In this document: positions 7,290 to 37,133 of the stretch, in pieces
Layout of the letters: every line of letters starts with the position of its first letter
How positions within the stretch are numbered: the first letter of the stretch is position 1
Assembly: GCA_013115135.1 (NCBI GenBank)
Contig: JABANP010000137.1
Location: 1 to 64,000, forward strand
Length of the DNA stretch: 64,000 nucleotides
Direction: 5' to 3'
Origin: Perkinsus olseni
Taxonomy: Eukaryota > Perkinsozoa > Perkinsida > Perkinsidae
The notes under the pieces: generated by a model
Database searches by the model: none
Told to the model about the DNA's origin: nothing
The model's input: only the letters and a program-made list of their open reading frames with translations
Position numbers and translations under genes: made by a program

Positions 7290-7440
7290 GCGTGATCGTG
7301 ATATGTGCGGACCACACGCATAGAGACAAAGCTTCGTCCGACTGCTCAATGCTGAGTCAAACGATGAGAAGAGCAGACTTCGTATTATGAATAATGACGA
7401 CATGTGGGTGGTCGTTGATGAGTTTGAAGGAGTTGGTAGG
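7290..7440 (+). pseudogene. Family A relic at the left edge of the array
   Basis: Nucleotides around 7290-7320 match the family A stretch coding LYTVxREGYI, and 7380-7430 match the stretch coding MNNSDMRVVVDEFE. There is no continuous frame. It marks the left limit of family A sequence. Confidence 0.65.
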
Positions 7441-7609
7441 AGCCGTATGAGTTGGCAGGTTGTTGACAGAGTTGGCAGACTGCCCTGTGGGACAAAACTC
7501 GGTGTTAATCCGCATACCGTCGCTCAAATTGTCTCATAGATTGCCCATGCTGTTGGTGTTGATTAGTGGAGAGTCAAGGGAATGGGCCATTATCAGGAAG
7601 GGCGTGGTT

Positions 7610-8688
7610 ATGGCCGTCTTCGGATGGGAAGAATTGGCAACAGAATCATCTCCGTGTTCCGCGATGTGTCTCCGGCTGAGAGCTCTCAACGAGGCGTCGG
7701 ACTCATCGGAGAGCGGCCTCTTGTGGAGCATGTGGTTGTACCTAGCCACCCCGAGGCCTACTGTGTCACCCATGTACACTGTGCAGCGTGAGGGCTACGT
7801 ATCCGGGGTCGCCGGTCTTGGTCGAAGCTCAATTCTGCTGAGTTCCGAGCCTGGCGGGGAGGGTGTGCGTACGATCAGCGGCCATGACATGACTGATGCG
7901 AACATGAGGGTGGTGGTTGATGAGTTTGAACTCAAGATTGACTATGGATACATTGCTACTGATGGCGAGAATCTATATCATGCTGGTGACGATGTAGGGC
8001 GGTGTTGTGTGCTCTGCGCGTCCCTTTCTCATGGTCAGCGTCTGGGTGTACTTCCCCAGGTGCGAAGCCCTACTACAATCTGTCCGAAACTTTCTGTGTG
8101 TCGAATGGACAACTTTTCATGGTGGGATACGGGGATGGCAAAGTGTTCAAAGTGGTGTTGCCTCCACCCGGCGACTATCTCACACAGGCAGCTGAAGTCC
8201 TTGACAGGAATGCTCCCAAAGGGAGTGTTGAGTGGGTCGCTGTTGCTGATCTCCCCTCCCGAGTAACCGATATCGACGTACTAGCTAGTGATGCTGATAG
8301 CTTCCAATTGGTCTGTGCGGGCCATGATGGCCATAGCGGAGAGTGTTACATCTACTTAGTCGATTATGAAGGGAAGGCCCGAGTGAAGCCTCATGTCGAC
8401 GCTCGGATGTGCAAGTTCGTTCCTTCTTCTGACGAGCTTGTGTGTGTTGCTGCCTGTCGAAATTCTGATGATTTCGCCTGGAGCATCAGCTTGGTGGACA
8501 TCTGGTGCATGTCGGTAGTCTTCTCGCTGGACGCTCTTCGTCACTATAAGGGTTGCCCTCATGACGTCCTCTGCAACTACATGACTATCACTGAGGACGG
8601 TCTTGTGGTTATCGCTCAGCAGAAAAACCGCGGTGTTGATGCAATATTCGAGTTGATGGTTTATCGACTACAGCTCTCGATCGGGTAA
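7610..8688 (+). pseudogene. Family A copy A1, one frameshift
   Basis: The copy starts at ATG 7610 and follows the family through CLRLRAL, the WSFLATP-like block (here WLYLATP), SGHDM and MRVVVDEFE. The frame is lost near 8050, where CTTCCCCAGGTGCG replaces the longer family sequence coding PAPPG; it resumes as PYYNLSETFCVSNGQLF and stays open to the stop at 8688. The downstream half holds ARMCKFVPSSDELVCVAA, ISLVDIWCMSVVF and TITEDGLVVIAQQK. The rest is well kept, so the break is young or an assembly error. Confidence 0.8.
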
Positions 8689-9266
8689 CGTCATCTAGTT
8701 TCTCTCATCCTCGTGTGGTTCGTGTTAACTCACCTTATGGCTCATCACTCACGTCACTTGCCCGTCTGAGGTTAGGGACCTCTGCCATGCTGACTCTGTT
8801 CTTGGATGGAGATGCTCATTCAGTACCAACACTATCGACGAAAAACACACTTGCAAACTTTTGCCTCGTTCTTTCTCCCTGGCTCGAAGCGTCGGTTCTA
8901 ATTCACTCATCGTTGCAAGCTTCGTCTGCTGTTGGACTTACGGCCGGAGCGTATGAGATTGCTGTTGTTTCCGCCTGTGTCGTACCTGCTGTCGCACTCG
9001 CAGCTGGCATGAAGTAGCACAAGCGGCTCGGATGAGGTGATTGCCGTTCTCTTCGTGAGTATCGCCGTCGCTGGCAAACACCTGACATATCGAGATGTGC
9101 GCATGCTCATTTCGTCCGGTACGATTTTCTTTTGTTATCCGCGTTGCGTTAGATTCCCGCACTCCAGGCTCGGGCTCGATACCGGCGTATATTTTGTTGT
9201 CGCCTGTTGACGGTTGTGACTGAGCTACTCGCTCGTTTTGGCAAGATTTTGTTTCCGTCGCTGAAA

Positions 9267-10325
9267 ATGGCAAAGAAGTTGTCTCGGCGTTCGGCGACGT
9301 GTTTGCACCTGAAAGCTCTCGACAAGGCGTGTGGTTCATCGGAGAGCGGCCTTCTGTGGACCTCATGGTCATTTCTAGGGGCGCCAATCCCTACCGTAGT
9401 GCCTCTGTACACCGTCCATCGCGAAGGCTTCATATGCGGCATGGACTCGTTGGGGCGGAGCTCCGTCCTGCTCAGTACTCAGCCACAAGATGGTGAGGAT
9501 ATACGCATCATTAGCGGGCATAATATCGATACTGAAGAGATGAGGGTGGTGGTTGATAAGTTCGAGGTCGATAGGATATTTTGGAGTATATCTACCGACG
9601 GCGAGATTTTATATTACCCTGAGATTGATGCACGGAGGAATTGCATGGTGCGCTTGTCCCTGTCTAGTGGCGATTGTGTGGGTGTTATTCCCGCACCACC
9701 AAACGAGGGCCGATACGGCAATCTGACGGATGCACACTGCGTTTCGAACGGACTCCTCTTCATGGAGGGCTTCGGAGACCACAAGCTGTTCCGAACTAGA
9801 CTACTTCCGCTCAGTGAGTATGCCGCACAGTCAGCCGAAGCCAGACTCCGTCCCATAGAGGGTGTCGAGTGGGAGGCTGTTGCTGATCTCCCGTCCGACG
9901 TTACTGATATGGATGTGATCGCTAGAGATGATGGCAAGTTCAAGCTGGTCTGCGTGGGCTACGATGTCGACACCGAAAAGCATTACATCCACTACGTTGA
10001 TTATGTGGGGAATGAGAGCGTCATACCTCACGACGAGGTGTCGATGTGCAAGTTCGTTCCTTCCTATGATGATCTCATTTGTGTTGCTGCGCGGCCGCTC
10101 TCCGATGAACCCTCATGGAACATCAGCTTGATTGATGTAGTGGACATGTCTGTGGTATTTTTGGTGGACTCTCTCTGTGACATCGGCTGCGACCCTTACG
10201 TCGGCTCCAACTGCTACTTGACCATCACAGAGGACGATCTTGTAGTTGTCGCTCAGCAGATCTCCAGTGACGAGGATGCGTTTTACGAGTTTGTAGCGTC
10301 GAGACTTCAGTGCTCGACTGCTTAA
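9267..10325 (+). CDS. Family A protein, copy A2, intact
   Basis: A 352-residue open frame from ATG 9267; an in-frame extension to 9207 is possible, but the alignment of starts in sister copies favours 9267. In order: an N-terminal helix with LSRRSATCLHLKAL, a hydrophobic block ending LLWTSWSFLGAP, then repeated short beta-rich modules: GMDSLGRSSVLLS, ISGHN, STDGEILYYPE, CVSNGLLFMEG, DVTDMDVIARDD, MCKFVPSYDDLICVAA, ISLIDVVDMSVVF and YLTITEDDLVVVAQQ. There is no signal peptide or membrane segment, so it is probably cytosolic or nuclear. A propeller-like fold is an inference from the regular strand-turn pattern; no known family was recognised. Confidence 0.85.
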   Translation: MAKKLSRRSATCLHLKALDKACGSSESGLLWTSWSFLGAPIPTVVPLYTVHREGFICGMDSLGRSSVLLSTQPQDGEDIRIISGHNIDTEEMRVVVDKFEVDRIFWSISTDGEILYYPEIDARRNCMVRLSLSSGDCVGVIPAPPNEGRYGNLTDAHCVSNGLLFMEGFGDHKLFRTRLLPLSEYAAQSAEARLRPIEGVEWEAVADLPSDVTDMDVIARDDGKFKLVCVGYDVDTEKHYIHYVDYVGNESVIPHDEVSMCKFVPSYDDLICVAARPLSDEPSWNISLIDVVDMSVVFLVDSLCDIGCDPYVGSNCYLTITEDDLVVVAQQISSDEDAFYEFVASRLQCSTA

Positions 10326-11882: not shown

Positions 11883-12860
11883 ATGGCAGTAGACCCTTCG
11901 TGGCGTTCCGCTCTGTGCCTCCGTTTAGCCGCACTCAAGAAGAGATGTGACGACTTACCGGAGATGGGCCTCCGTTGGATGACGTTGCCGTTCCTCTCTA
12001 CCTCGCTCTCCACTCTCTCGCCGATGTATACTTCGCACTGCGAGGGTGGCATACGTGGGCTGGCTTCATTGAAAGGTGACTCGGTCATTTTCGGTGTGCA
12101 GCCCGAGTGGGAAGAGTTCATCACGATTAGTTGTCATGATATGAGTGATAAAAACATGCGGATGGTGGGTGATGAGTTGGCCGTCGATTGGGTCCCTACC
12201 AATATCAGCACCGATGGTGAGATCTTTTACTTTCCCGATGAATATGCGCCCCAGTTCGACTCTATGGAAGTATGGACGACTCACAACTGCGTATCGAATG
12301 GGTATCTCTTTAAGGTTGGGACCGACTTCAACTTATACGGTACAATATTGTCGGATCATGTCAAACAATTATCCCTCGCCGGTGAATGTCTTATCGATGG
12401 TGTTGACTGGAAGTTCGTTGTGCCCTTTACGGATGATTTCTCTGATCTGGACATTATAGTCAGAGATGATGGTCGGTTTCAATTGGTCTGGGTGTGCTAT
12501 GAAGAGCGAACTGGAGAGGGGTGTATCTGCTTTCTGGGGTTCAAAGGCGACTACCGTGTCAAGGCTCACAGCGACGCCCGAATGTGCAGGTTCGTTCCTT
12601 CTAATGACGAGTTAGTGTGCGTTGCTGCTGGACCACAAAGTTTCGAGTGGCTATCGAGGTACGCGTGGGTTATCAGCCTGGTAAATATTTGGTCTATGTC
12701 GGTGATCTTCTCACTGGACCCTCTGCCCTACTACCCTATATTTCCATACGTTGGTCGCCACAGCTATCTAACAATCACAGAGAACGATATCGTAGTCCTC
12801 GCTCAACAGAAAGACTTTCGACGAGCTATTGTGGAGGTCATTGTCATCAAAGTTCGTTGA
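11883..12860 (+). CDS. Family A protein, copy A3, intact but short and diverged
   Basis: An open frame of 325 residues from ATG 11883 (MAVDPSWRSALCLRL). It lacks about 25 residues found in other copies between the STDGEIFYFPDE module and CVSNG, that is the segment with the VMRVSLSNGD and PPG motifs. The later modules are kept: ARMCRFVPSNDELVCVAAG, VISLVNIWSMSVIF and YLTITENDIVVLAQQ. It is among the most divergent open copies, yet the frame is intact, which argues for selection or a recent frame-preserving deletion. Confidence 0.82.
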   Translation: MAVDPSWRSALCLRLAALKKRCDDLPEMGLRWMTLPFLSTSLSTLSPMYTSHCEGGIRGLASLKGDSVIFGVQPEWEEFITISCHDMSDKNMRMVGDELAVDWVPTNISTDGEIFYFPDEYAPQFDSMEVWTTHNCVSNGYLFKVGTDFNLYGTILSDHVKQLSLAGECLIDGVDWKFVVPFTDDFSDLDIIVRDDGRFQLVWVCYEERTGEGCICFLGFKGDYRVKAHSDARMCRFVPSNDELVCVAAGPQSFEWLSRYAWVISLVNIWSMSVIFSLDPLPYYPIFPYVGRHSYLTITENDIVVLAQQKDFRRAIVEVIVIKVR

Positions 12861-13229: not shown

Positions 13230-13961
13230 GCGTTCCTGTACACTGAGCAGCTTGAGGGTTATAATTCTGGTTTGAACTCATGGGAGGAAATTCCGTTCAA
13301 TTGAGCATTCATGAAGAAGGATATGATTACACTAGTGTGATCAGTGGGCATGATATCAGTAGTTCAAACATGACAACGGTGGTTATGCATTCCGGGTCGG
13401 AGATCGTACTAAGATGATTTGTACGGATGGGGAGATTGTTTATTATGTAACCAGAGGTGTGGTAAGGCGCGCGTCCCTGGCCAATGGTGCTTTGATGCGG
13501 TGGATTCGGCTTTATTCATCCGAGGACCGATTCAATGAAGGTGTTTTATGGTTAGTAGTTGGCCTCGCGGGGGCTTTAAGCTGCTCAAGGTGAGACTACC
13601 CCCACCCCGGGAGTGTCTCGAACGTCCAATTGAAGATTTCCGCGAAAATTGTCCATTTAAGGGTGTTGAGTGGGAAGCTGTTGCGATTCTCCCAATCAGC
13701 CCTTTTGATATTGACGTTAGAGCTAGAAGTGACGGCGAATGCCAGATTGCTACCGTCGGCAGGACGAGCGGAGATAGACATCGGGATTACATCTTTTACG
13801 TCGGTTTTGAAGGCATTAGATGGCTCGAAGGCTTCGAAGATGCATCAATGTGCAAATTTGTTCCCACCCATGACGAGTTGGTATGTGTTGCTACGGAATG
13901 GGCGATACGGACACCAAACCGCATTTGCTTGATAGTTCACCTCATGGGGAATGGCAGTTAA
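13230..13961 (+). pseudogene. Family A relic A4, fused into the start of A5
   Basis: The 5' part (13230-13545) is recognisable as the VYTxEQxEG, SGHDI and TVV blocks but is full of stops and shifts. From 13548 a frame runs through KLLKVRLPPP, VEWEAVA and DASMCKFVPTHDELVCVA to TAA at 13959-13961. The expected C-terminal third (SLVDxWSMSV onward) is missing: the sequence passes directly into the ATG of A5 at 13951, with an 11-nt overlap between this stop and that start. Confidence 0.75.
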
Positions 13962-15011
13962 ATCGTCTCGGCGTTCCGCGGTGTGTCTGCGACTGCGGGC
14001 CCTCGATAATACACAAGTTTTGCCAGAGAACGGTTTTTTATGGACGACATGGTCATTCCTGGCGACTCCACAGTCTACTCTATCCCCTTCGTATACTGTC
14101 CGCCACGGTGGCTTCATATGCGGGCTGGATTCGTTCGGGCGAAGTTCCGTCCTTTTTAGTGTTAAGCCGATGCACGGTGAAGATGTGCGTCTGATCAGCG
14201 GGTATGATGTGAATGCTGGAGGCATGACAGCGGTGTTTGATGAGTTGGAAGTAGATGGAGAATTGATGAGTGTTTGCACCGACGGAGAGTGTTTGTATTA
14301 TTCTGATTTTGGCCTAGAGAGGAACTGGCTGGTGCGTATGTCCCTTTCCGACAGTGACTGTGTCGATATACTTCCCGCACCGCCCGGTGAGCACCCCAGC
14401 TGTAACCTGTCAGACACTCACTGTGTGTCAAATGGACAGTTATTCATGGTCGGGAACCAGGAGACTGCAAGTTATTCAGAATGAGGCTGCTGCCTGGTGT
14501 CAGTGACCACCTAGAACTGTCATCATGCAGGTTTCGTCACCCTGTAGACGGTCTTGCGTGGGAGCCTGTTGCTAATCTCCCGCTGGAAGTAATTGCTATC
14601 GACGTAGTGGCTCGAGCTGATGATAAATTTCAGTTCGTCTGCCTGGGTTGTGATGACGGAAGTGAAAGATATTCTATCCACTTTGTTGATTACGATGGCA
14701 CTGAGAAGATTGTTCCGTGCAAAGATGCGCGGATGTGCAGATTTGTTCCCTCGCGTGATGAGCTGGTATGCGTTGCTACGAACCTTATGTCTTCTACAGT
14801 ATCATGGTCGATTATACTTGTGGATGTCTGGTGCGGGTCTGTCCTCTCTACGCTGGACCATACGTCTCCCTACGGGTGTGACCCCTTCCTCGGCTGTCAT
14901 TGCTATCTGACTATCACTGAGAACGATCGTGTAGTTGTCGCACAGCAACACATCAGGGATAGAGAGTGCTTTTTTGAGGTGGCGGTCTGGCAAGTTGGTA
15001 CTCGATCGTGA
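13951..15011 (+). pseudogene. Family A copy A5, one frameshift
   Basis: Starts at ATG 13951 (MAVKSSRRSAVCLRLRAL). The frame is normal to LFMVG near 14450, then shifts: the bases before CAAGTTATTCAGAATGAGG differ from the family consensus in length, and the family frame (KLFRMRLLP) continues in another register from about 14458. The second frame is open to 15011 with ARMCRFVPSRDELVCVAT and YLTITENDRVVVAQQ. Apart from this single lesion the copy looks complete. Its 3' end and flank are the source or sister of those of A6. Confidence 0.78.
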
Positions 15012-15412: not shown

Positions 15413-15860
15413 ATGAAGTCCTCCCGGCGTGCCGCGGTGTGTCTCCGTTTAAGTGCTCTCAGAAAGAAGTGTGACTCATCAGAGAGCGGCTTTTTATGGA
15501 TCTCGTGGTCATTCCTGATGGGTGGGAGGCCCACCCTATCGCCCCTGTATTCTATTCGTCGCGAGGGGTACATGTACGGGCTCGACTCTTTTGGGCGAAG
15601 CTCTATTCTGCTGCTGAGTAACCCAGCTGTCCTACAGATGTGGGACATGCGCACGATCGGTCGCTATGATATCGACGTTGAGAATCTGAGGGAGTGGCCT
15701 GATGTCCTCGAAGGAATTTGTTGATTACGATGGCACTGAGAAGATTTTTCCTATCTAGCTATCACTGAGAACGATCGTGTAGTTGTCGCACAGCAACACA
15801 TCAGGGGTAGAGAGTGCTTCTTCGAGGTGGCGATCTCGCAAATTGATACTCGATCGTGCC
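15413..15860 (+). pseudogene. Family A copy A6, large internal deletion
   Basis: ATG 15413 begins MKSSRRAAVCLRLSAL and the frame holds to the block after DSFGRSSILLL. Near 15715 it jumps to sequence matching A5 at about 14690 (VDYDGTEKI), and then jumps again to match A5 at about 14905-15010 (AITENDRVVVAQQHIR). Roughly the middle half of the gene is gone. Both flanks resemble those of A5 and A7, so this is a block duplicate that later lost its centre. Confidence 0.78.
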
Positions 15861-15916
15861 GGCGCCCCCATTTGATAGTTTCACCCTCGTGCCATGTTCA
15901 TGGTGAGCATATGTAT

Positions 15917-16276: not shown

Positions 16277-17298
16277 ATGAAGTCCTCCCGGCGTGCCGCG
16301 GTCTGTCTGCGTCTAAGTGCTCTCAGAAAAAGTGTGACTCATCAGAGAGCGGCCTGCTGTGGATCTCATGGTCATTCCTGATGGCTGAGAGGCTCACCCT
16401 ATCGTCCCTGTATGCTGCTGGACGCGAGGGATTCATACTCGGGCTGGACGCATTCCAGCGAAGCTCTGTTTTGCTGCTGAGGCAGCCAGGTGATTTCCAG
16501 CAAAGGCGGGTGATGAGTCGTTATGCTCCCGATGGTTTGAACTTGACCACATGGACTAATGTGTTTGAAGCGGATCGCCCTTTAAGGAGTCTCCGTACCC
16601 TTGGGGACCGCTCGCATGTTCTTGTCACTTGTGATAATATGTTGCTGGTTATATCTTTCCGTAGTCGAAAGTTCAAAGGATTCATTACCGCCCCGCCAGG
16701 CAACGATCTATCGTATTTGAACTGCGTGTCAAACGGACGATTTTTCATGGCAGGGCGCAAAGAGCGAAAACTATTCAGCGCTACACTGCCTCCGTTCGGC
16801 AAACTCCCCATACAACCGGGCTCTGCCAGACTCCACCCCATAGAGGGTGTTCAGTGGGAGGCTGTCGCTGATCTCCCGTCCGACGTTACTGATATGGATG
16901 TGGTCGCTTGAGATGATGGCAAATTCGAACTGGTCTGCGTGGACTATGATGTCGACGCCGAAAAGCATTACATCCACTATGTTGATTATGAGGAGATTAT
17001 CACGATTGTGAGCATCTCGGAAGAGGCGTGGCTGTGCAAGTTTGTTCCTTCCAATGATGAGCTAGTGTGTGTGGCTGGTCGCGCCGACTCCTCTAACCTC
17101 CTTTGGATCAGCCTGATGGATACCTGGTCCATGTCGGTGCTCTTCATGCTGGACCGTCTAGAAGTCTCCGGATTTGGTCATAAATTGAGTTACCCCCGCT
17201 TTTTAACGATTATGGAGAACGGTCTCGTGGTTGTAGGCCTCCAAAATGATGTTGAGGAGGATCCATTCTTCGGAGTTTTGGTCTCGCAACTTGAGTGA
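16277..17298 (+). pseudogene. Family A copy A7, frameshift and stop
   Basis: ATG 16277 opens the conserved start, but one base is missing near 16325 (AGAAAAAGTG against AGAAAGAAGTG in A6), so the later frame is out of register with that ATG. A second lesion is an in-frame TGA at 16909-16911 where sisters have AGA in VIARDD. The rest is open to 17298, including EAWLCKFVPSNDELVCVAG and FLTIMENGLVVVG. Around 16840-16980 it is closest to A2, although its 5' half is closest to A6: this mosaic suggests gene conversion. Confidence 0.8.
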
Positions 17299-17695: not shown

Positions 17696-17789
17696 TGGAA
17701 AAAGGAAACAAGGCCTCGGAACGCTACGATTCTCGGATGGGCAACTTCATTTTCTTCCTTGATGAGCTCACGAGTCCCCCGTTGTAAGA

Positions 17790-18984: not shown

Positions 18985-20034
18985 ATGCCACAGGATCTGT
19001 CTCGGCACTCGGCAGCGTGTCTGCGTATGAAGGCCCTCAACGTTGCGTTCGGTTCGTCCGAAGGCGACCTTCTCCGGAACACATGGTCATTTCTCGCTCC
19101 CCCAAGGCCCACCCTATCGCTCCTGTACACGGTTGACCGCGACGGATACATTTACGGCATGGCCCCCTTGGGTGCGAGCTCCGTCCTTTTGAGTGTTGAT
19201 CGAGACGCTGACGACATACGATGGATCAGTGGCCACGATATGAGTAATAGCGACATGAGGACGGTGGTTAATGCGTTCGAAGTCGACAGGCTTCCTTATG
19301 GCATTTATACTGATGGTGAGAGTGTATATTATCCCGACTACCTTGTTGATCCAGGTTGGGTTATGCGCAGGTCTCTCTGCAATGATGAGCCTAGGCAATT
19401 AATTCCTACTCCACCGGGTGGAGATCCACATGAACGTCTGTCAGAAGCAAACTGTCTGTCTAATGGGCAGCTTTTCGTGGTGCAATACGGACCACGTAAA
19501 CTTTTCAAGACTAAAATTCCTCCGTTCGCTAATGAACACCTGGATGGGATCCGTAACTCGAATCGTTTCATAGATGTTGAGTGGAAGCCTGTTGCTGATC
19601 TACCGCTCAATACTTACTCCACCATTCTCGATATCGACGTAATTGCCGGAGATGATGATGAGTTGCGGTTGGTCTGTGTTATCTACGACAATCGAAGTCA
19701 TGATTCTGTCATTTACTATTTTGATAGTGATCGAGGTGGCTCCTTCAAGCCTTTCGCCGACTCTCAGATGTGCAAGTTTGTTCCTTCCTTCGACGACTTA
19801 GTATGCGTTGGCTCTCGCCCTGAGTCTCAGACGTTTTCGTGGACCATAAGTTTGGTGGATGTCTGGTCCATGTCTGTGGTCTACACGCTCGATTATCCAT
19901 GCCTCTTCACGTGTAGTTCGTTCAGTTCTTACTTGACAATAACGGAGAGTGGTCTTGTCGTTCTAGCTCAGCAGAAAGACTCCTCTGATCCACTTTTCGA
20001 GATCATCGTGTGGCGTCTGAGATTCTCCAGTTGA
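18985..20034 (+). CDS. Family A protein, copy A9, intact
   Basis: A 349-residue frame from ATG 18985 (MPQDLSRHSAACLRMKAL); the ORF could extend in frame to 18886, but the sister A12 aligns at 18985. It has the family modules GMAPLGASSVLLSV, ISGHDM, YTDGESVYYPD, RRSLCNDE, LSNGQLFVVQYG, SQMCKFVPSFDDLVCVG, ISLVDVWSMSVVYTLD and YLTITESGLVVLAQQ. It is closest to A12: both have the FGSSEGDLL variant, RRSLCNDE and NEHLDG. Downstream sequence is also shared with A12, so the two are block duplicates. The function is unknown; probably a soluble beta-rich protein. Confidence 0.85.
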   Translation: MPQDLSRHSAACLRMKALNVAFGSSEGDLLRNTWSFLAPPRPTLSLLYTVDRDGYIYGMAPLGASSVLLSVDRDADDIRWISGHDMSNSDMRTVVNAFEVDRLPYGIYTDGESVYYPDYLVDPGWVMRRSLCNDEPRQLIPTPPGGDPHERLSEANCLSNGQLFVVQYGPRKLFKTKIPPFANEHLDGIRNSNRFIDVEWKPVADLPLNTYSTILDIDVIAGDDDELRLVCVIYDNRSHDSVIYYFDSDRGGSFKPFADSQMCKFVPSFDDLVCVGSRPESQTFSWTISLVDVWSMSVVYTLDYPCLFTCSSFSSYLTITESGLVVLAQQKDSSDPLFEIIVWRLRFSS

Positions 20035-22195: not shown

Positions 22196-23227
22196 ATGAG
22201 TATGGAATGGTCTCGACGGTCCGCGGTGTGCCTGCGGCTGAGGGCTCTTACCGAGAGATGTGATGCATCGGAGGACGGCCTCTCTTGGATCATGTGGTCA
22301 TTTCTGTCTACACCAAAGTTCACTCTGTCACCTCTCTACACTGCGCACCGTGAAGGCTACATATCCGGGATGGACTCATTGGGAGGAAGCTCCGTCATGC
22401 TGAGTGTTGAGCCCGACGGTGAGGGTATAAGCAAGATCAGCGGGCATAATATGAATAGTGAGGAGATGAGAGTGGTGGTTGATGAGTTTCAACTTGATGC
22501 ACGGCCGTCGAATATTTGTACGGATGGTGAGGTCTTATATCATTCCGGGGTCGTGTGCGTGTCGCTATCCAATGGTGGTCGCATAGGATGGATTCCCCCA
22601 CCACCAGGAGCAGACAAGAACCTGTCAGGAACAAGCTGTGTGGCCAATGGGGAGCTCTATATGTTGGGGTGCGGAGACCGCAAGTTATTTAAAACCAGAT
22701 TTCCTCCCCTCGGCTGTTTTGAGCAATCAGCTGAGCTCGTTGGCCGAAGTGCTTCGGCGCACAGTTTCGAGTGGGAGCTTGTTGCAGATCTCCCGATCAA
22801 GGTTTCTGAAGTGGACGTATTGACCAGAAATGATGGTAAACTCAAATTCGTCTGTGTGGGACGTGATCCTAGCACTTGGGAGTGTTATATCTACTATGTC
22901 GGCTATGAGGGTGATACGAGGTTCGAGCCTTTCGAGCGTGCTTGGATGTGCAAATTCGTTCCATCCTACGACGAGCTAGTATGTGTTGCTGGCTCCCCTG
23001 AGACCCAAAATTTTCCTTGGATAAGTTTGGTGGATATCTGGTCGATGTCAATGGTCTTTTTCCAGAATCGTCAGGGTGACTACGACTGGGACCAGAATAT
23101 CAGCGCCGACTGTTATCTTGCTATCACGGAGAACGGTCTTGTTGTTCTTGCCCAGCAAAAAACCGGTGGTTACGAGCTGCCAATCTTTGGGGTGCTGGTC
23201 TCGCGACTTCAACGCTCGATCGAGTGA
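22196..23227 (+). CDS. Family A protein, copy A11, intact
   Basis: A 343-residue frame from ATG 22196 (MSMEWSRRSAVCLRLRAL); upstream in-frame codons to 22076 are open, but family starts align here. The modules are GMDSLGGSSVMLSVEPD, ISGHNMNSEEMRVVVDEF, CTDGEVLYHS, CVANGELYMLGCGDRKLFKT, RAWMCKFVPSYDELVCVAG, ISLVDIWSMSMVF and YLAITENGLVVLAQQK. A short deletion removes the segment after LYHS that in sisters reads DxxARPGxVM. No signal peptide. Function unknown. Confidence 0.85.
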   Translation: MSMEWSRRSAVCLRLRALTERCDASEDGLSWIMWSFLSTPKFTLSPLYTAHREGYISGMDSLGGSSVMLSVEPDGEGISKISGHNMNSEEMRVVVDEFQLDARPSNICTDGEVLYHSGVVCVSLSNGGRIGWIPPPPGADKNLSGTSCVANGELYMLGCGDRKLFKTRFPPLGCFEQSAELVGRSASAHSFEWELVADLPIKVSEVDVLTRNDGKLKFVCVGRDPSTWECYIYYVGYEGDTRFEPFERAWMCKFVPSYDELVCVAGSPETQNFPWISLVDIWSMSMVFFQNRQGDYDWDQNISADCYLAITENGLVVLAQQKTGGYELPIFGVLVSRLQRSIE

Positions 23228-23872: not shown

Positions 23873-24116
23873 ACGCACGCAACACAATGTACGCATACGC
23901 TCTACCCAAAGCACATAAGATACGTGCGCGCAGATGCCGAACAAACACATATGCTTCACTGTCTCAGTTAAAAAGTCAATTGCGGATCGCACGTAGCGGT
24001 CGCTGTGGCTCCCACAGGAGCTGCGGTAAAACTAATCGGGTGCAAGATGATCTCTATCTGGTCTCCGTGGTTGAGCAATCGACTGCGAGCGGAGGTATAT
24101 ACAATAAGCACACCCG

Positions 24117-24881: not shown

Positions 24882-25934
24882 ATGCCAGAGGAACCATCCT
24901 GGCACTCAGCAGCGTGTCTGCGCATGAAGGCTCTCAACAATGTGTTCGGTTCATCTGAAGGCGATCTCCTCTGGAGCACATGGTCATTTCTCGCTTTCCC
25001 AAGGCCTACCCTATCGATCCTGTACACGGTATACCGCGAGGGACACATTTTCGGGATGGACTCATTCGGTGAAAGCTCCGTCCTTCTGAGTGTTGACCCA
25101 CATGGTGATGGCATACGCATGATCAGTGGCCATGATATGAATAATAGTGACATGAGGGTGGTGGTTGACGAATTCGAAGTCGATAGGCACCCTGAGAGCA
25201 TCTTTACCGATGGTGTGAGCTTATATTATCCCGATTACGATGCTCGGCCGGGTTGGGTTATGCGCAGGTCTCTCTGCAATGATGAGCGTAGGGATTTAAT
25301 TCGCTCGCCACCGGGTACGGACACATACGATAATCTGTCAGAAACTAACTGTGTGTCCAATGGGCAGCTTTTTATGGTGGGGTATGGAGCAGGTAAACTT
25401 TTCAAAACTAAAATTCCTCCGCTCCCTAACGAACACCTGGATGGGTTCCGTAGCCCGCATCCTTTTATAGATGGTGTTGAGTGGAAGCCTGTTGCTGATC
25501 TACCGGTCAATCGTTACTCCACCGTTACTGATATCGACATCATAGCCGAAGGTGATGATAAGTTGAGATTGGTCTGTGTTGGCTATGATGACGATAGTCG
25601 TGAGCGTTTCATTTATCATTTCGATAGTGATAGAGGCGGTACCTTGAAGCGTCACTCCGGCGCCCGGTTGTGCAAGTTCGTTCCTTCCTACGACGAGCTA
25701 GTATGCGTCGCCTCTCGGCCCGACTCTCAGACGTTTTCGTGGACCATCAGTTTGGTTGATGTCTGGTCCATGTCGGTGATCTACACGCTCGATTATCCAT
25801 GCCACTCAAAGTACAGATCGTTCTGTGCTTACATGGCCATCACGGAGGGTGGTCTTATCGTTCTAGCTCAGCAGAGAGGCTCCTTTGACCCACTATTCAA
25901 AGTTATCGTGTGGCGTCTGAGGTTCTGCAGTTGA
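24882..25934 (+). CDS. Family A protein, copy A12, intact
   Basis: A 350-residue frame from ATG 24882 (MPEEPSWHSAACLRMKAL). All modules are present: LLWSTWSFLAFPRPTLS, GMDSFGESSVLLSVDP, ISGHDMNNSDMRVVVDEFE, FTDGVSLYYPDYDARPGWVM, PPGTDTYDNLSETNCVSNGQ, GAGKLFKTKIPPL, GARLCKFVPSYDELVCVAS, WTISLVDVWSMSVIYTLD and YMAITEGGLIVLAQQ. It and A9 are a recent pair by sequence and by flanks. It is a good reference copy for the family. No targeting signal is visible; the function is unknown. Confidence 0.87.
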   Translation: MPEEPSWHSAACLRMKALNNVFGSSEGDLLWSTWSFLAFPRPTLSILYTVYREGHIFGMDSFGESSVLLSVDPHGDGIRMISGHDMNNSDMRVVVDEFEVDRHPESIFTDGVSLYYPDYDARPGWVMRRSLCNDERRDLIRSPPGTDTYDNLSETNCVSNGQLFMVGYGAGKLFKTKIPPLPNEHLDGFRSPHPFIDGVEWKPVADLPVNRYSTVTDIDIIAEGDDKLRLVCVGYDDDSRERFIYHFDSDRGGTLKRHSGARLCKFVPSYDELVCVASRPDSQTFSWTISLVDVWSMSVIYTLDYPCHSKYRSFCAYMAITEGGLIVLAQQRGSFDPLFKVIVWRLRFCS

Positions 25935-27155: not shown

Positions 27156-28185
27156 ATGTCTATGCAATTGTGTCGGCACACCGCGGTGTGTCTGCGTCTA
27201 AGCGCTCTCAGGAAGAGATGTGACTCATCAGAGAGCGGCCTTATGTGGACCTCATGGTCATTCCTGACGGCTGGAAGGCCTACCCTATCTCTTGTGTATG
27301 CTGCCGAACGCGAGGGATACGTGTGCGGGATGAACACGTTCGGGCGAGGTTCCGCTGTGCTGAGCATTCTTTCAGATCGCTCCAGGCCTATGCTGATCAG
27401 CTCCCATGATTTCGACGATGAGAACTTTGGGGTGATGACTGATAGGTTCGAAGTGGACGGGAGAAACAATAAGTATTTGTGTTGACGGAGACTGCATATA
27501 TTATCCCCAATTGAACCGACGGAGCATGGCCCGTGTGTCCCTCTCCAGCGGTGTTCGTGTGGAAGTGATCCCTGCCCCGCCAACCACTAGCTCACGTGAG
27601 TACTTCACGCAATTCAACTACGTGTCAAATGGGCATCTTTTCGTGGCAATGCGCGGTAAACTGATCAGAACTAGACTATCTCCGCTCGGTGAACATCATG
27701 AGCAATCAGTGCTTGGCAGAACTGGTTCCACCGACGGTGTTGGCTGGGAGGCTGTTGCTGATATCAAACTCGTCGTTACTGGTCTGGATGTGATCGCCAG
27801 GAGTGATGATGAATTCCAGTTAGTCTACGTGGGCCGTAATGCCGACACCGACGACTTCGCGACCTACATCCACCATATTGATTATGAAGGGAATGAAAGG
27901 CTCGAGCCCTACGAAGACGCATGGCTGTGTAGATTCGTTCCTTCCAATGATGAGCTAGTGTGTGTGGCTGGCGGGCTCGACTCCTCCGACGTTCCTTGGA
28001 TTAGCTTGGTGGACGTCTGGTCCATGTCGGTGCTCTTCGTGCTGGACCGTCCAGGAGGCATCGGAAAGTACAACAAGTTCGGAGAGTCCTGGTATTTAGC
28101 TGCCATGGAGAACTGTCTTGTGGTTGTTGGTCAGCAAAGGTCAGCGAACCCAGTCTTCCAAATAATGGTCTGGGAACTTCAGTGA
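27156..28185 (+). pseudogene. Family A copy A13, one frameshift shared with A14
   Basis: ATG 27156 (MSMQLCRHTAVCLRLSALRK) opens a frame to 27485. The family frame (SICVDGDCIYYP) continues in another register: AACAATAAGTATTTG has one extra base near 27470. From there it is open to 28185 with YVSNGHLFVA, DAWLCRFVPSNDELVCVAG, ISLVDVWSMSVLF and YLAAMENCLVVVGQQ. The identical lesion occurs in A14, so it predates that duplication and is not a random sequencing error in one copy. Confidence 0.8.
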
Positions 28186-29103: not shown

Positions 29104-29494
29104 CAACGGTAGGGTCTGCGCTGGCTCGTTTGGTGGTCAACGTGATGAGATGTTCTTCGTCTACGATATGTACAAGGATGCCGTCCTCGCACCGCCTGAG
29201 TGCCACTGCCCCGAGGGTCTTCTTCCTCGCTGTGAGTACGAGTGCTTCGGCTATGAAGACATCTGCTCCCTGAGCATAAGCGATGACTGGAAGGCCTATA
29301 TAGCTATTCGTGGTAGAAGTGAGGCTGTACGTGGCAACAGGGTCACTTACTGTGCAGGGTACTCTGTCATGAAGCTCAGACACTACGTCAAGTATACCCG
29401 TCACGAGGACCATGGATTCCATATGGAGTACATGGAGGAGGAAGAACGAGAACTCTACGGTTCCGATTACGATAGTGATGAAAGTGACTTTTAG
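29104..29494 (+). pseudogene. A/B chimera: family A start fused to family B 3' part (B2)
   Basis: Upstream of about 29103 the sequence is the start of an A15-like gene (MASTVLAKMASEL). From about 29105 it is nearly identical to B1 from 39243, including RDEMFFVYDMYKDAVLAPPE, ISDDWKAYIAIRG and the acidic end GSDYDSDESDF with stop at 29494. The A frame does not continue in register into the B frame, so no joined A/B protein is expected; a B-only product from ATG 29150 is possible. Confidence 0.8.
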
Positions 29495-30128
29495 GCGGTG
29501 CTGGCTCAGTGCTGTACAGGAGAGTTTTATCTTCGGTGGACTCCTGCCGAGTCTATATATGCAGAAAGCTGCTTAGTCTGGGATTACGGTCGACTCATTG
29601 TGTGTTTTGTTATCTAGATCAGTGGTAGAGATTGATGACTCGTAGCTGAGCAATCAAATGACAACCAACATTTTCCTCTGAGTTTTCGCTCGCTTGTGAA
29701 ATTGAGTTCAAGTGAAAGCGCTCGGGGCCTCATTTTTACAGCTCACTTCCCCGAGGACATAAGCCTTCGCCCGCACAGATACCGTATCGCTGTGATCCCT
29801 GCTCCAGTGCCGAGGCTAAGAAGCTGTTTCGGTTGTTTGTTTTCCGCACTGTATCGGAAAGAAGAGCCACCGATCTTCGAGGATTTCTTCAACCACAGCT
29901 GCATGGTACTCCGTCGCATAGTGTGAGCTCAATAGATACAAGACTGGTTGTGCACAGGACCGTCTTGTCAAGACGCTCGAGAATGTATGTCATGAAATGT
30001 AACTCCGCGGTGAGCCACGGGTCAGCAGAACTTTGCTCGCCGTGGGACCGTTCTGCGATGATCGCAGGCTGGGTGCGATACTAACACCCTTAATTTCATT
30101 GTCAGTCGAACTCTGTTTCATTGATTTT
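29495..30128. repeat. Family B 3' flank, copy of 39632-40255
   Basis: Almost identical to the DNA after B1, up to TTTCATT at about 30121, where it breaks and A14 begins in mid-codon. It contains only short frames. Confidence 0.85.
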
Positions 30129-31182
30129 CACCGCGGTGTGTCTGCGTCTAAGCGCTCTCAGGAAGAGATGTGACTCATCAGAGAGCGGCCTTATGTGGAC
30201 CTCATGGTCATTCCTGACGGCTGGAAGGCCTACCCTATCTCTTGTGTATGCTGCCGAACGCGAGGGATACGTGTGCGGGATGAACACGTTCGGGCGAGGT
30301 TCCGCTGTGCTGAGCATTCTTTCAGATCGCTCCAGGCCTATGCTGATCAGCTCCCATGATTTCGACGATGAGAACTTTGGGGTGATGACTGATAGGTTCG
30401 AAGTGGACGGGAGAAACAATAAGTATTTGTGTTGACGGAGACTGCATATATTATCCTCAATCGAACCGACGGAGCATGGTCCGTGTGTCTCTTTCCAGTG
30501 GTGATTGTGTGGAAGTGATCCCTGTCCCGCCAAGCACTAGCTCACGTGAGTATTTCACGCAATTCAACTACGTGTCAAATGGGCATCTTTTCGTGGCAGT
30601 GCGCGGTAAACTGATCAGAACTAGACTATCTCCGCTCGGTGAACATCACGAGCAATCAGAGCTTGGCAGAACTGGTTCCACCGACGGTGTTGGGTGGGAG
30701 GCTGTTGCTGGTATCAAACTCGTCGTTACTGGTATGGATGTGATCGTCAGGAGTGATGATGAATTCCAGTTAGTCTACGTGGGCCGTAATGCCGACACCG
30801 ACGACTTCGCGACCTACATCCACCATATTGATTATGAAGGGAATGAAAACCTCGAGCCTTACGAAGACGCATGGCTGTGTAGATTCGTTCCTTCCAATGG
30901 TGAGCTAGTGTGTGTGGCTGGCGGTCTCGACTCCTTCGACGTTCCTTGGATTAGCTTGGTGATGTATTCGGGTTTTACCTTCGGGATACCAAGAAACCCG
31001 AATAGCTTGGTGTCTGGTCCATGTCGGTGCTCTTCGTGCTGGACCGTCCAGGAGGCATCGGAAAGTACAACAAGTTCGGAGAGTCCTGGTATTTAGCTGC
31101 CATGGAGAACTGTCTTGTGGTTGTTGGTCAGCAAAGGTCAGCGAACCCAGTCTTCCAAATAATGGTCTGGGAACTTCAGTGA
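30129..31182 (+). pseudogene. Family A copy A14, 5' truncated, frameshifted, palindrome insertion
   Basis: A near-identical duplicate of A13 that starts at CCGCGGTGTGTCTGCG without the ATG and first codons. It has the same extra base near 30420 as A13. At 30965-31004 a palindrome interrupts the SLVDVWSMSV stretch and breaks the frame again; after it the sequence matches A13 to the stop. A few substitutions separate A13 and A14, so the duplication is recent but not an assembly repeat. Confidence 0.83.
30965..31004. mobile_element. Small palindromic insertion flanked by a 10-nt direct repeat
   Basis: Arms 30965-30975 and 30994-31004 are perfect 11-bp complements (TATTCGGGTTT). The insertion lies between two copies of TAGCTTGGTG; A13 has one copy at this place and no insertion. 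After the second copy four bases (GACG) of the A13 sequence are missing. This is what a small non-autonomous element, or a template-switch event, would leave. Confidence 0.72.
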
Positions 31183-32069
31183 TTGACCGAATGCCCACGC
31201 GATCGATTAAAAGTTGACTCGATCATCACACCCTCACCATGAGGGCCCCGTGATTATTATAGCATGGTTGTTATGATCGCATCAATTCATATGACCTGTG
31301 TCGCGTTTACTACCAGCCTTCCTGCCCAGTGAGTCGCGGTTCATTAGCTTCGAAGATGGCGAGTTCACTACTGATAATCGTCTCGTCGCCATGACCGCTG
31401 CAATGCTATTGCCTCGTGGAATGTGTACCGCAATAGCAGATGCTGCAGACTCTCAATCAAAACTCAACTCAGTGAGAGACATGTGTGCCACCGAGTGATC
31501 GCCGCTGCACCCTTCATGATGATGACAGTGTGCACGAAAATGACTAGTGATGAGCACTTCGCGATGCCTCATTCCTGATGAACTCGTGAGTGCCGAACCC
31601 TTGCACTCGTATCTTCAGGCATTCCAATCGCATGAGTAGGGAGACTGGTATTGACCAATCAGGCAATAGTTGTGTAGAGAGACATCACTATGGCCTGATT
31701 ACACTAGCGATCGTCACGGCCTCGTATTTTGTGATGGTGTCTATAACTTCGTGGGGTTGCTGAGTATAATGAGGGGATTCATGAGGACGACGAATGCTCA
31801 ATCGGGTTGTTTTGGATTTTCCTCAATGGTTGCTTTTGTTTCTTTCCGTTATAGATCGGTTGTGCAACAACAGCCTCTCAACGCCAACCTCTCGCAGCTC
31901 GAACCCAAGTTCCAGTCTCATGAACGGGGGACCAGAGTCTAATCGCTAGACTATGAGAACGTGCATCGTGTTTAGTTGACGCTCCTTACTGGCCGGAGGG
32001 GTGGCAGACGTGTCATACAATAAGGCTTATCCAGACATCTCGTTAATGGCTTCTACAGTCCTCGCAAAG
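31183..32069. repeat. Duplicated spacer, copy 2
   Basis: Nearly identical to 28186-29103. It ends in the intact start of A15. Confidence 0.85.
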
Positions 32070-33129
32070 ATGGCAAGCGAGTTGTCTCGCCGTTCAGCAT
32101 TGTCTCTACGTCTGAGAGCTTTCCACGAGGCCTGTCACTTATCGGAGGGCGGCCTTCTGTGGACCATATGGTCATTCATAGCCACTCCAAGGCCCACTTT
32201 ATCGCACTTGTACACCGCCCAGCGTGGAGGGTACATATCCGGGATGGACTCATGGGGCCGAAGTTCTGTTGTCTTTAGTGTCCAGCCAGCAGATGGTGAA
32301 GATGTACGTGTGATTAGCGGCCACGATGTCGGGGACGATTACCTTAAAGTGGTGGTTGATGAGTTCGAAGTGGACAGGCTCCCTATGAGTATTTGTACCG
32401 ACGGCAATATGCTTTATTTTTCTGATGCGGATGCGGAGCGAGGCTGCGTGGCGCGTATGTCCCTCCCCCATGGCGATCGCGTAGTTGTGTTTCCCTCTCC
32501 GCCAGGCCAGGACTCACACTACAACCTGTCGGAAACAAATTGTTTGTCCAATGGACAACTTTTCATGGTGGGATACGGAGATCACAAGCTATTCAGGACG
32601 GTCCTACCTCCCGTCGGTGATGATGTGGATCGATTGGTCTCCGACGTGGATTGTCCAATAGACGGTGTTGAGTGGAAGCCTGTTGCAGATCTTCCGTTTG
32701 ACGCTTCCTACATCGACGTGATAGCGAGATGTGATAGCGAGAGATAAAGATGAGTTCCAGTTCGTTTGTGTGGTTTATAATGATAAGGAAGGAGATCGTT
32801 CCATTTACTATGTCGATTTCGAAGGCAACAAGACCCTGATACGCTACAACGATGCTTGGATGTGCAAGTTCGTTCCCTCCCATGTGTTGCCTCCCGATCG
32901 CCTCGCGATGCTTTCTTGTGGGACATCAGTTTGATGGATATCTGGTCCATGTCTGTGGTATGCTCGCTACCGTCCCTGACTGAACTTTGCAATGGATGCC
33001 TCCCTCGGATGTTACTGCTATCTGGGTGTCACTGAGAGCGATCTTGTGGTTCTTGCTCAGCAACACACCTACGATGCTGATCCAACTTTTCTTGTGGTGG
33101 TCTCGCAACTACGATTCCCTGTGAGGTGA
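32070..33129 (+). pseudogene. Family A copy A15, several lesions
   Basis: ATG 32070 (MASELSRRSALSLRLRAF; in-frame ATGs at 32001 and 32046 are also open). The frame is normal to DASYIDVIAR near 32720, where a 13-nt tandem repeat (GTGATAGCGAGAT) shifts it. A deletion of about 13 bases after FVPSH near 32882 and further indels near 32985 follow. The C-terminal modules are recognisable in changing frames and end at about 33129. It is a close paralogue of A17, which is intact. Confidence 0.8.
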
Positions 33130-33610: not shown

Positions 33611-33880
33611 AACAAGGAGGCCGTCCCGACGCTCCGGATTTTGTCTGCGTCTTGATGTGCTGAACGAAACTTACGACTCGTCGGAGGGTGTCCTCCTTTG
33701 AATCACATGGTCATTTCTGGCGACTCCCAGACCGGCCTCATCGCCTCTCTACGCAGTCGATTGTCAGGGCTATATATCTGGGATGGGCCCATGTGGTCGT
33801 CGCTGCGCGCCTGCAAGGCGGTCCTCGAGTTCGTCCTCAGCTTTTAAGTCGCAGGGTAAAATCCTCCCCGTGAGGGCCAT
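33611..33880 (+). pseudogene. A/B chimera A16
   Basis: Bases 33611-33792 match the start of A18 (PSQRSAVCLRLNVLN, TWSFLATPRPALSPLYxVD, GYIxGMxS) with stops and a damaged ATG. At about 33793 the sequence switches to family B, matching B1 from about 38636 (VAARLQGGPRVRPQ) to 33880. This is a second A/B junction, at a different place in both families from the one at 29104. Confidence 0.75.
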
Positions 33881-33964
33881 AGCCGCAAGCCGGTGATACC
33901 GATAAGTGCTTGTCTTACGCTTTCTTTCATTATAGATTGCTTGTGCGACAACACCCTCACAACG

Positions 33965-34001
33965 CCGTCGGGATTCCCGACGGAAACCCGATTCGGGAAT
34001 C
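33965..34001. mobile_element. Compound palindromic insertion
   Basis: CCGTCGGGA-T-TCCCGACGG (33965-33983) is a perfect 9-bp palindrome; it is followed by AAACCCGATTCGGGAAT, which adds a second small palindrome (CGATTC/GAATCG) and an ATTCCCGA...TCGGGAAT pair. The paralogous spacers near 28905 and 31883 lack this insert, carrying AACCTCT at this point. Confidence 0.75.
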
Positions 34002-34142
34002 GCAGCTCCAACTTACGTCCCAGTCCGATAAATGGCGCGAATAGACTATGAGAACGTGCATCGTGTTGAGTTGACGCTCCTTACTGGCCGGAGGGGTGAC
34101 GGGCGTGTCATACAATAAGGCTTTTCCAGACTTATCTCGTCA

Positions 34143-35234
34143 ATGGCTTCTACAGTCCTCGCAGAGATGGCAAGTGAGTTGCCTCGCCGGTCAGCAATGT
34201 GTCTGCGCCTGAGAGCTTTCAACGAGGCCTGTCACTTATCGGAGGGCGGCCTTCTGTGGACCATATGGTCATTCATAGCCACTCCAAGTCCTACTCTGTC
34301 GCACTTGTACACCGTCCAACGTGGGGGGTACATATCCGGGATGGACTCATGGGGCCGAAGCTCTGTTGTCTTCAGTGTTCAGCCAGCAGATGGTGAGGAT
34401 GTACATGTGATCAGCGGCCACGATGTCGGGATCTCTGGCCTAAGAGGGCTGTTTGATGAGTTCGTGGTGGCCGGGCCCTATATGAGTATTTGTACCGATG
34501 GCAATATGCTTTACCATCCTGATTCGGATGCGCTCCGAGGCTCCCTGGCGCGTCTGTCCCTCTTCAATGGCGATCGCATGGGTGGGATTCCCTCACCACC
34601 AGGCAAAGACTCATACGAAAACCTGTCGGAAACTAGCTGTTTGTCCAATGGACAACTTTTCATGACGGGATACATAGACCGCAAACTATTCAGGACTACC
34701 CTGCCTCCCGTCGGTGATGATGTGGATCGTTCGGTCTTCGGTGTGGGTTGTCTCATAGACGGTGTTGAGTGGATGCCCGTTGTAGGTCTTCCGTGGGACG
34801 CCAACTGTATCGATGTGATAGCGAGAGGTAATGGTGAGTTCCAGTTCGTTAGTGTGGGTTATGATGGCAAGGAAAGAGACTTCCTTTACTATGTCGATTT
34901 CAAAGGCAACGAGTCCCTGAAATGCTATAGAGAAGCCCGGATGTGCAAGTTCGTTCCTTCCCATGATCAGCTTGTCTGTGTTGCAGCCCGATCACCCAGC
35001 GATGCTCTTTTGTGGGATATCAGCTTGGTGGATATCTGGTCCATGTCCGTTGTGTTCTCGCTACCGTCACTGACTGACTTTGCGAAGGACGACCGTCTTG
35101 GCTGTTACTGCTATCTGGCTATCACGGAGAACGATCTCGTCGTTCTTGCTCAGCAAAAGTCCTACCTTGTTGATCCAACGTTTGATGTCGTGGTGTCACA
35201 ACTGCGATTCCCTATGAGATTTTCCATCTCATGA
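34143..35234 (+). CDS. Family A protein, copy A17, intact
   Basis: A 363-residue frame from ATG 34143; the family-aligned start is ATG 34167 (MASELPRRSAMCLRLRAF). The modules are LLWTIWSFIATPSPTLS, GMDSWGRSSVVFSVQPADGE, ISGHDV, CTDGNMLYHPD, PPGKDSYENLSETSCLSNGQ, RKLFRTTLPPVGDDVDR, EARMCKFVPSHDQLVCVAA, WDISLVDIWSMSVVFSLP and YLAITENDLVVLAQQK. It is the sister of A15; their leaders are nearly identical. Probably soluble; function unknown. Confidence 0.87.
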   Translation: MASTVLAEMASELPRRSAMCLRLRAFNEACHLSEGGLLWTIWSFIATPSPTLSHLYTVQRGGYISGMDSWGRSSVVFSVQPADGEDVHVISGHDVGISGLRGLFDEFVVAGPYMSICTDGNMLYHPDSDALRGSLARLSLFNGDRMGGIPSPPGKDSYENLSETSCLSNGQLFMTGYIDRKLFRTTLPPVGDDVDRSVFGVGCLIDGVEWMPVVGLPWDANCIDVIARGNGEFQFVSVGYDGKERDFLYYVDFKGNESLKCYREARMCKFVPSHDQLVCVAARSPSDALLWDISLVDIWSMSVVFSLPSLTDFAKDDRLGCYCYLAITENDLVVLAQQKSYLVDPTFDVVVSQLRFPMRFSIS

Positions 35235-36088
35235 CATAACAATTCACAACTGCGATTCTCTATGACAATTTCAGTGGGTCGCTGGCAGTGGCCCGCTGCT
35301 ATGCCTTCATGAGCTCGTGTTACCAATGGATTGCATTCGGCCTGGTCGAATCGACCAGCCAATTGGAAAAGTATTGCCTCATTTTTTTCACTCGGTGAGG
35401 AGTTGGGGAGTCCCAGCGGACTCGAAATAGATATGCCCACATCCACGTGGTGCCTCTGGGTCAGGGCACATGACAACCTCTGTACAATTGATAATCCGTA
35501 ATCTAGGCCAGACCGCTAGTGGATGAAAGCGGCCGCCTTGAAAGTCGTTATAGTCGTCCTGTCGCTATGGATTTTTCAACCCCTTGGGGAAGATGCCAAT
35601 GGAGGAATGTATAGAGTAGTCGCGGTTCGGCGTCCCGCGATGTGTCTGCGACTGAGGAATCGATGCTGTACCGTCAGGATCTTCTATTTTCGGTGCTTGC
35701 TGCGAGACTAACGTCAGTACAGTCCCTGCTTTACTAGGTTGTTGTTTCCTCCACACGCAATTAGTCTTGGGTTTCGAGTCGGGGATGGCTATAGCAAGGA
35801 CTCTAGCCTCTGCTACTGGGATTCCGTCTCGGTTCCCCTTTCCAATTGTTTACAGCGGAAAACAAGTCTGCATGAGTTCGCCACTTCTCGTGGATGGTAC
35901 TCAAGGCAGGTGTGAAAGGGGCAGGCCTTTCAGTGAATGCCAACTATTGATAAGTCGCACATTCTCAGAGGGTCTTCGAGAGATCCTGTTAGGGAAGACA
36001 GTATCGATATATAAAATCTTCATGTTCCGTACGCCTTCGGGGTAATGCATCCGTTACAGGCCCTTATTCTCCAACTTCAAAAGCAACA
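35235..36088. other. Spacer A17-A18 with a family A relic
   Basis: Bases 35621-35670 match the family start (VRRPAMCLRLR) and then diverge. No other gene is recognised. The first 40 bases after A17 repeat part of its own last codons (AACTGCGATTC at 35200 and 35250). Confidence 0.5.
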
Positions 36089-37133
36089 ATGAAACCGTCC
36101 CAACGCTCCGCGGTCTGTTTGCGTCTTAATGTGCTAAACCAGAAGTACGACTCGTCGGAGGGTGCCCTCCTTTGGGTCACATGGTCATTTCTGGCGACTC
36201 CGAGGCCGGCCTTATCACCCCTCTACACGGTCGATCGCCCGGGCTATATAGCTGGGATGGACTCATTCGACCGGAGCTCCATCCTCCTTAGTGTTGAGCC
36301 GGATCAAGCTCCGGAACTGAAGACAATCAGCGGTCATGATATGGAGAGCGACGGCATGACGATGGTGGTTGATGAGTTTGATGTTGATACTGAGTCTTCA
36401 AGAATCTGTACGGATGGCGAGCTTTTTATATTATTATGATCGGGATGTTCGGCCAGGTTTTATCATGCGCGTATCCCTCTCCAGTAGGGATCGTACGGGG
36501 TGGATTCCCTCGCCATCAGATGGTCCCGACCATTATCTGTGCGACTCAACCTGTGTGTCTAATGGACAGCTTTTCACGGTAGGGTACAAGAATCGCAAGC
36601 TGTACAGAACAGAATTGGCTCCGCCCGGGGCTTATCTTGACCAGGCGGTTCTCGACATCCACGATCCTATAGATGGTGTGAAGTGGGAAGCTGTTGCAGT
36701 TATCCCGGGTGACGTCTGTGATATCGATATAACAGCGAGAGATGACGATAAGTTTCAACTCGTCTGCGTGTTGTACGAAGATGGTAGAACTTACATCCAC
36801 TATGTTGATTTCAATGGTAATGGAAGTATCGAGCCGTACGAGCCCGCCGACATGTGCAAGTTCGTTCCTTCCTACGACGAGCTAGTATGTGTTGCTGCCC
36901 GACCGTATTGCAAGAGCTTTTCTTCTGTCAGTTTGTTGGATATGTGGAGCATGTCGGTGCTCTTTACGTTGCGCCCTTCTGAGGGCTGTGGTCAAGACCA
37001 ACAGCTCAGCTCCTTCCGTTATCTGGCGATTACCCAGAGCGGTCTTGTAGTTCTGACTCACCAAAAGACCGGTGGTGGTTTCAATCCACTTTTCACAGTG
37101 ATGACCTCACGAGTTCATTTTTCGACCGGGTGA
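36089..37133 (+). pseudogene. Family A copy A18, single-base frameshift in a T run
   Basis: ATG 36089 (MKPSQRSAVCLRLNVL). Everything is family-like up to CTDGEL; GAGCTTTTTATATTATTATG then has one T too many, giving a stop at 36437-36439, while the family frame (LYYYDRDVRPGFIMRVSLSS) runs on to 37133. The later modules include STCVSNGQLF, PADMCKFVPSYDELVCVAA and YLAITQSGLVVLTHQK. One homopolymer base is the only lesion, so it may be a functional gene with a sequencing error. Confidence 0.8.

What the first reader, a model, noticed from the sequence alone, without database searches (positions are those of the whole stretch)
7290..37133. Large tandem array of an unrecognised intronless gene family (family A)
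At least 18 copies or pieces lie head to tail on the plus strand: six open (A2, A3, A9, A11, A12, A17), one with a single homopolymer lesion (A18), and the rest pseudogenes or relics. All share a fixed order of motifs (RRSAxCLRLRAL, WSFLATPRPTLS, GMDSxGRSSVLLS, ISGHDM, TDGExLYY, CVSNGQLFMV, MCKFVPSYDELVCVA, ISLVDxWSMSV, YLTITENxLVVLAQQ) that I cannot assign to a known family. The absence of signal and membrane segments points to a soluble protein. The mix of intact genes and pseudogenes resembles repertoires that evolve by duplication and gene conversion.
Basis: partly seen in the sequence, partly recalled or inferred. Interest (0 to 1): 0.8.

Follow-up and report, generated by a model that had tools for sequence, protein, structure and literature searches.

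The report
Perkinsus tandem family of beta-propeller genes
A mollusc parasite carries a row of about sixteen related, mostly old gene copies, some intact and some broken, whose proteins are predicted to fold as propellers, a common protein-binding shape; the family itself has no name or known role yet.

The parts
7634..8679 (+). copy 1, near full length, one frame change
   Evidence: models under three other tags show no residue missing at that place (P0007, P0013, P0017)
9264..10322 (+). copy 2, open, 352 aa from its first ATG
11883..12857 (+). copy 3, open, 325 aa, lacks about 22 profile positions
13233..13913 (+). copy 4, relic in several frames
13951..15002 (+). copy 5, near full length, one frame change
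15413..15850 (+). copy 6, fragment with large internal deletion
16277..17295 (+). copy 7, near full length, frame change and stop
18985..20031 (+). copy 8, open, 349 aa from here
22205..23224 (+). copy 9, open, 340 aa from here (the ORF starts upstream at 22076)
24882..25931 (+). copy 10, open, 350 aa; the folded member
27156..28185 (+). copy 11, near full length, one frame change
29104..30122 (+). 1,019-base ungapped piece of the downstream paralogue and its 3' flank (96.3% to 39241-40259), lying between the two units of a 1.9-kb duplication
   Evidence: for the coding part
30130..31179 (+). copy 12, duplicate of copy 11, in three pieces
32070..33120 (+). copy 13, several breaks; a full-length counterpart model exists under another tag (P0004)
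33615..33800 (+). copy 14, fragment
34143..35231 (+). copy 15, open, 363 aa
36089..37133 (+). copy 16, near full length, one frame change; models that cross that place exist under other tags (P0008, P0016)
38399..39628 (+). distant paralogue, open, 410 aa, similar predicted fold, close relatives in P. chesapeaki and P. marinus

Best explanation
The array is an old expansion of a Perkinsus family of soluble proteins, each with a short helical N-terminus in front of a (probably six-bladed) beta-propeller. Shown: tandem copies, open and broken; counterparts under other P. olseni locus tags, in the same order; dN/dS below 1. Predicted by model: the fold. Inferred: the proteins work as intracellular interaction adaptors. 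In this reading the rigid propeller presents variable loops that choose partners, and the helical N-terminus docks to something shared. Copies arise by tandem duplication, are kept by purifying selection, and some are lost strain by strain.
Against: The adaptor role has no direct evidence; propellers also bind nucleic acid or lipids, or act as enzymes. Foldseek TM-scores are modest (query-normalised 0.23-0.50 in the 50 rows shown). The helical part is of low confidence (blocks of 50-62 pLDDT), two of five models scored only 66-67, and the 38399 model shows one long helix there instead of two. Loops vary more than strands in most proteins. Synonymous change is near saturation in most pairs (pS 0.6-0.76); the only intact pair with moderate dS (copies 8 and 10) gives 0.42. 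No significance test was run. Two proteins (P0021, P0023) have no close window counterpart, and FOZ63 has two relatives of copy 16. No transcript or protein evidence was available.
Confidence: 0.4

Rival explanations
1. Substrate receptors of an SCF-like ubiquitin ligase: the N-terminal helices would be a degenerate F-box in front of a propeller.
For: Architecture (short helical N-terminus, then propeller) resembles F-box/kelch or F-box/WD40 proteins (recalled). Some distant paralogues have a start of the form PEDVxxxIWxxLP; its likeness to an F-box start is recalled, not tested by profile-profile comparison.
Against: No F-box match at E <= 10 in the 27 members of A1, the 16 of A4 or the 10 proteins (overlapping sets; the tool's filters drop many weak matches). 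The F-box-like model PF12937 finds 25 places in this genome, 4 over its cut-off, none at a family locus (below the cut-off it also rings in 3 of 14 control genomes). PF00646 was not searched in the genome. The model shows two helices running straight into a strand, not the three of an F-box, though with low confidence.
Confidence: 0.12
2. RNA-binding regulators of the NHL type (like Brat, Mei-P26, TRIM71).
For: The best structural matches are NHL propellers, some of them RNA-bound.
Against: All six open copies are acidic (pI 4.5-5.2, net -13 to -28). No NHL match in Pfam. A shared fold shows no function.
Confidence: 0.08
3. Host-directed or antigenically variable repertoire fed by conversion from broken copies.
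For: Parasite, tandem array, intact and broken copies, status apparently differing between strains; local homogenisation around one start.
Against: No signal-like start; dN/dS below 1; 17 of 19 proteins keep to one copy, in the same order; distant paralogue conserved in the genus.
Confidence: 0.08
4. A decaying array with no remaining function.
For: Ten of 16 copies are broken or fragments; the young duplicates 11 and 12 are both broken.
Against: Six open copies of 325-363 aa with dN/dS below 1; full-length counterpart models under other tags.
Confidence: 0.12

Closest known systems
NHL-type six-bladed beta-propellers (Brat, Mei-P26, TRIM2/3)
   Different: 9-13% identity over the aligned residues, no Pfam NHL match; the RING/B-box/filamin parts of such proteins (recalled) are not seen; different organism group
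F-box/kelch and F-box/WD40 substrate adaptors
   Same: Short helical N-terminus before a propeller
   Different: No F-box match by profile; two low-confidence helices instead of three in the model
Perkinsus propeller paralogue at 38399-39628 and its relatives P0028 (P. chesapeaki), P0030 (P. marinus), P0029 (unnamed source)
   Same: Homologous by profile comparison over 236 columns, similar predicted fold
   Different: Longer protein, found in three Perkinsus species at 67-79% identity; the array family was found only under P. olseni names

Membership tests
beta-propeller fold | closed ring of four-stranded blades | tested here: met
   model with 23 strands, pTM 0.79; propeller chains fill most of both lists. 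A prediction, not a structure; Foldseek TM-scores at most 0.50
NHL repeat family | NHL sequence repeats (Pfam NHL) | tested here: not met
   no NHL match in 27 members at E <= 10; no internal repeat above noise in a profile self-comparison
WD40 or kelch repeat family | sequence repeats matched by Pfam | tested here: not met
   no such match
F-box proteins | F-box domain at the N-terminus | tested here: not met
   no profile match; the helix count in the model is of low confidence
F-box proteins | binding to Skp1 | not testable with these tools
   needs an experiment
antigenic-variation repertoire | secretion or surface signal | tested here: not met
   best 19-residue hydropathy in the first 35 residues of six open copies at most 0.55; copy 9 was read from 22205, not from its upstream ATG; no dedicated predictor was at hand
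antigenic-variation repertoire | sequence exchange among copies | tested here: inconclusive
   seen around the start of copies 13 and 15; only two pairs were scanned in sliding windows

The most novel reading that the evidence does not exclude
Perkinsus has evolved its own repertoire of intronless propeller adaptors, spread over at least 18 contigs and unlike any curated family, with one ancient conserved member next to a fast-turning array. The array would supply strain-specific sets of partner-binding proteins, possibly feeding a lineage-specific protein-degradation or scaffold machine through the helical N-terminus.
Probability: 0.2. Interest if true: 0.65.

Novelty: new member of a known kind. 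Interest (0 to 1): 0.42.

Why it matters
This places one unnamed multigene family: a propeller family with a distant relative conserved in the genus and a strain-variable array in P. olseni. It gives a clear case for reading array birth and death across strains, and warns that annotated models in such arrays bridge broken copies with doubtful introns.

Tried and rejected
Pfam at E <= 10 for the proteins and for the 16 and 27 members gave only chance-level hits for the family. PDB by sequence gave nothing below E 0.1. Blade-to-blade sequence repeats: none above noise. A retroposition trace: a spliced-leader pattern recalled from memory has no match in the window with up to 3 mismatches; this does not exclude retroposition, as the pattern may be wrong for this species. 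Rfam at gathering thresholds and a tRNA scan (bacterial code) of the window: none. Programmed frameshifting, known from Perkinsus mitochondria (PMC9550989, title and start of abstract seen): rejected as a general account, because the frame changes fall at different profile positions in copies 1, 5, 11 and 16 and models under other tags cross some of those places without missing residues. That copies 11 and 12 share a place fits inheritance through their duplication.

Literature: looked for this family, for propellers in Perkinsus and for Perkinsus genome papers. Only listings with the starts of abstracts were seen (for example 20 of 22 papers, 10 of 526, 15 of 64,149); no paper was opened. None of the listed titles or abstract starts describes this family. 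That is no claim about unlisted papers or subscription journals.

Limits: proteins under other tags are annotated models from clusters at 90% identity, and their DNA was not seen; that different tag prefixes are different strains is my inference. In this same genome the models P0001 and P0014 drop 26 and 16 residues against open frames, and P0022 and P0026 bridge breaks, so a full-length model elsewhere does not prove an intact gene. I rely only on models without missing residues for copies 1 (P0007, P0013 and P0017 at that place), 13 (P0004) and 16 (P0008, P0016). P0019 and P0005 are left open. The protein searches need shared 5-residue words, so absence of the array family outside P. olseni is weak evidence; relatives on C457, C323, C335 and C264 were not in those queries. 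In one search only the 7,999 candidates sharing most words were scored. Counts of genome places are lower bounds; the match on C67 is weak (E 3.7e-4). The entropy contrast shrank when only the 12 full rows were used.

Full report
What the window is. A homology search with the open copy at 24882 returned 21 proteins, 20 of them named as Perkinsus olseni and one (P0002) that equals a window copy. P0001 matches the query apart from 26 residues missing from the model, and lies on a contig of 117,594 bases. That is the length of contig C43 that holds the window, in a genome of 61.5 Mb and 968 contigs. The window is therefore from P. olseni, assembly with locus tags FOZ60.

The array. A family profile finds 16 copies or pieces on the plus strand at 7634-37124: six open, seven near full length but with frame changes or stops, three fragments. 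Start-to-start spacing runs from about 0.5 to 3.2 kb. The extent and the six open copies of the finding are right; the count of 18 is two more than is firm here. The coding parts show no introns in the sense that paralogues align end to end in one frame; whether transcripts are spliced was not tested.

How the array evolves. Open copies differ from each other at 48-58% of residues in 14 of 15 pairs (the 15th, copies 8 and 10, is 70% identical), with near-saturated synonymous change. Of 19 proteins under four other tag prefixes (FOZ61, FOZ62, FOZ63, FOL46), 17 are 77-100% identical to one window copy: for example copy 1 with P0005, P0007, P0013, P0017; copy 2 with P0009 and P0018; copy 3 with P0024; copy 9 with P0012; copy 13 with P0004 and P0011; copy 15 with P0006; copy 16 with P0008, P0015 and P0016. 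The other two, P0021 and P0023, group with copies 7 and 11/12 but at only 53-61%. Both P0015 and P0016 are FOZ63, so the pairing is not strictly one to one. The tree used 35 rows: 13 window copies or pieces, these 19 proteins and three distant relatives; the same-genome or identical rows P0001, P0002, P0010, P0014, P0022, P0025 and P0026, and ten smaller window pieces, were left out. Tags in FOZ63 follow the order of the window copies in two runs (023936-023944 and 021338-021340), while two further FOZ63 proteins (028201, copy 5; 012998, copy 16) carry tags outside them. Tags in FOZ61 and FOL46 follow the order reversed (tags, pairing). So most copies predate the strains. This is birth and death, not array-wide conversion.

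Exceptions that show recombination. Copies 11 and 12 belong to a 1.9-kb duplication (27179-29102 and 30129-32084, 96-97% identical). Between its units sits a 1,019-base ungapped piece, 96.3% identical to 39241-40259, the 3' part of the downstream paralogue and its flank. Copies 13 and 15 are 91-94% alike over about 300 bases around the start (31968-32265) and 79-87% after that. At protein level they are 90-92% alike within this genome over the first 80 residues, against 62-78% after that. In FOZ63 the same pair is 95% over the first 40 aligned residues and 65-78% after that. Across genomes the pair P0004 and P0006 is 72-85% over the first 80 aligned residues, while orthologues in the same stretch are 80-92% (all). 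This fits local conversion around the start. The last 29 or so aligned residues of P0004 and P0006 are also 97% alike, which I did not follow up. Copies 8 and 10, scanned the same way, show no such tract.

Selection. Nei-Gojobori ratios are 0.16-0.42 for 14 of 15 pairs of open copies, one pair being saturated. The pair with moderate dS (copies 8 and 10, dS 0.41) gives 0.42. Pieces of broken copies give 0.23-0.54 in 12 of 13 comparisons; the 13th has no changes. No test of significance was made, and pseudogene pieces carry selection from before they broke.

Broken copies elsewhere. For copies 1, 13 and 16, models under other tags run through the broken place without missing residues. These are annotated models, and some models in this very genome bridge breaks or cut out coding residues, so the DNA would have to be checked. 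The point stands that broken or intact status seems to differ among strains or assemblies.

How it most likely works. The open copies are acidic (pI 4.5-5.2), lack a hydrophobic start, and vary more in loops than in strands or helices (1.44 against 1.11 and 1.02 bits, 12 full rows; an earlier count on all 22 family rows gave 1.69, 1.31 and 1.06). I infer soluble intracellular adaptors with a shared docking end and variable binding loops. An F-box at that end is not supported. My confidence in the propeller fold is about 0.9, in purifying selection on at least some copies about 0.85, and in the adaptor role about 0.4.

Noticed in passing
window 40500-41390 and 43288-44133, plus strand: A second tandem pair of related ORFs without significant Pfam match; the upstream one has a hydrophobic stretch near its start. 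Relatives at 12 places on 8 contigs of the genome, the window's own included.
   Followed up: partly
window 56494-58035, plus strand: Parts of an RNA polymerase largest subunit (Rpb1 domains 2 and 3), giving a conserved anchor beside the array.
   Followed up: partly
window 29104-30122 and 39241-40259: Ungapped 1,019-base copy of a paralogue's 3' part placed exactly between the two units of a younger duplication, as if copied in during the duplication.
   Followed up: partly
proteins P0001, P0010, P0014, P0022, P0026 (models of this contig): Public gene models of the array drop coding residues or fuse pieces of different copies; the annotation of this array is unreliable.
   Followed up: partly
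L055 and L046 (C605, C135): Superfamily members whose reading frames carry a long C-terminal acidic tandem repeat built on the unit DEVVYDDIF.
   Followed up: no
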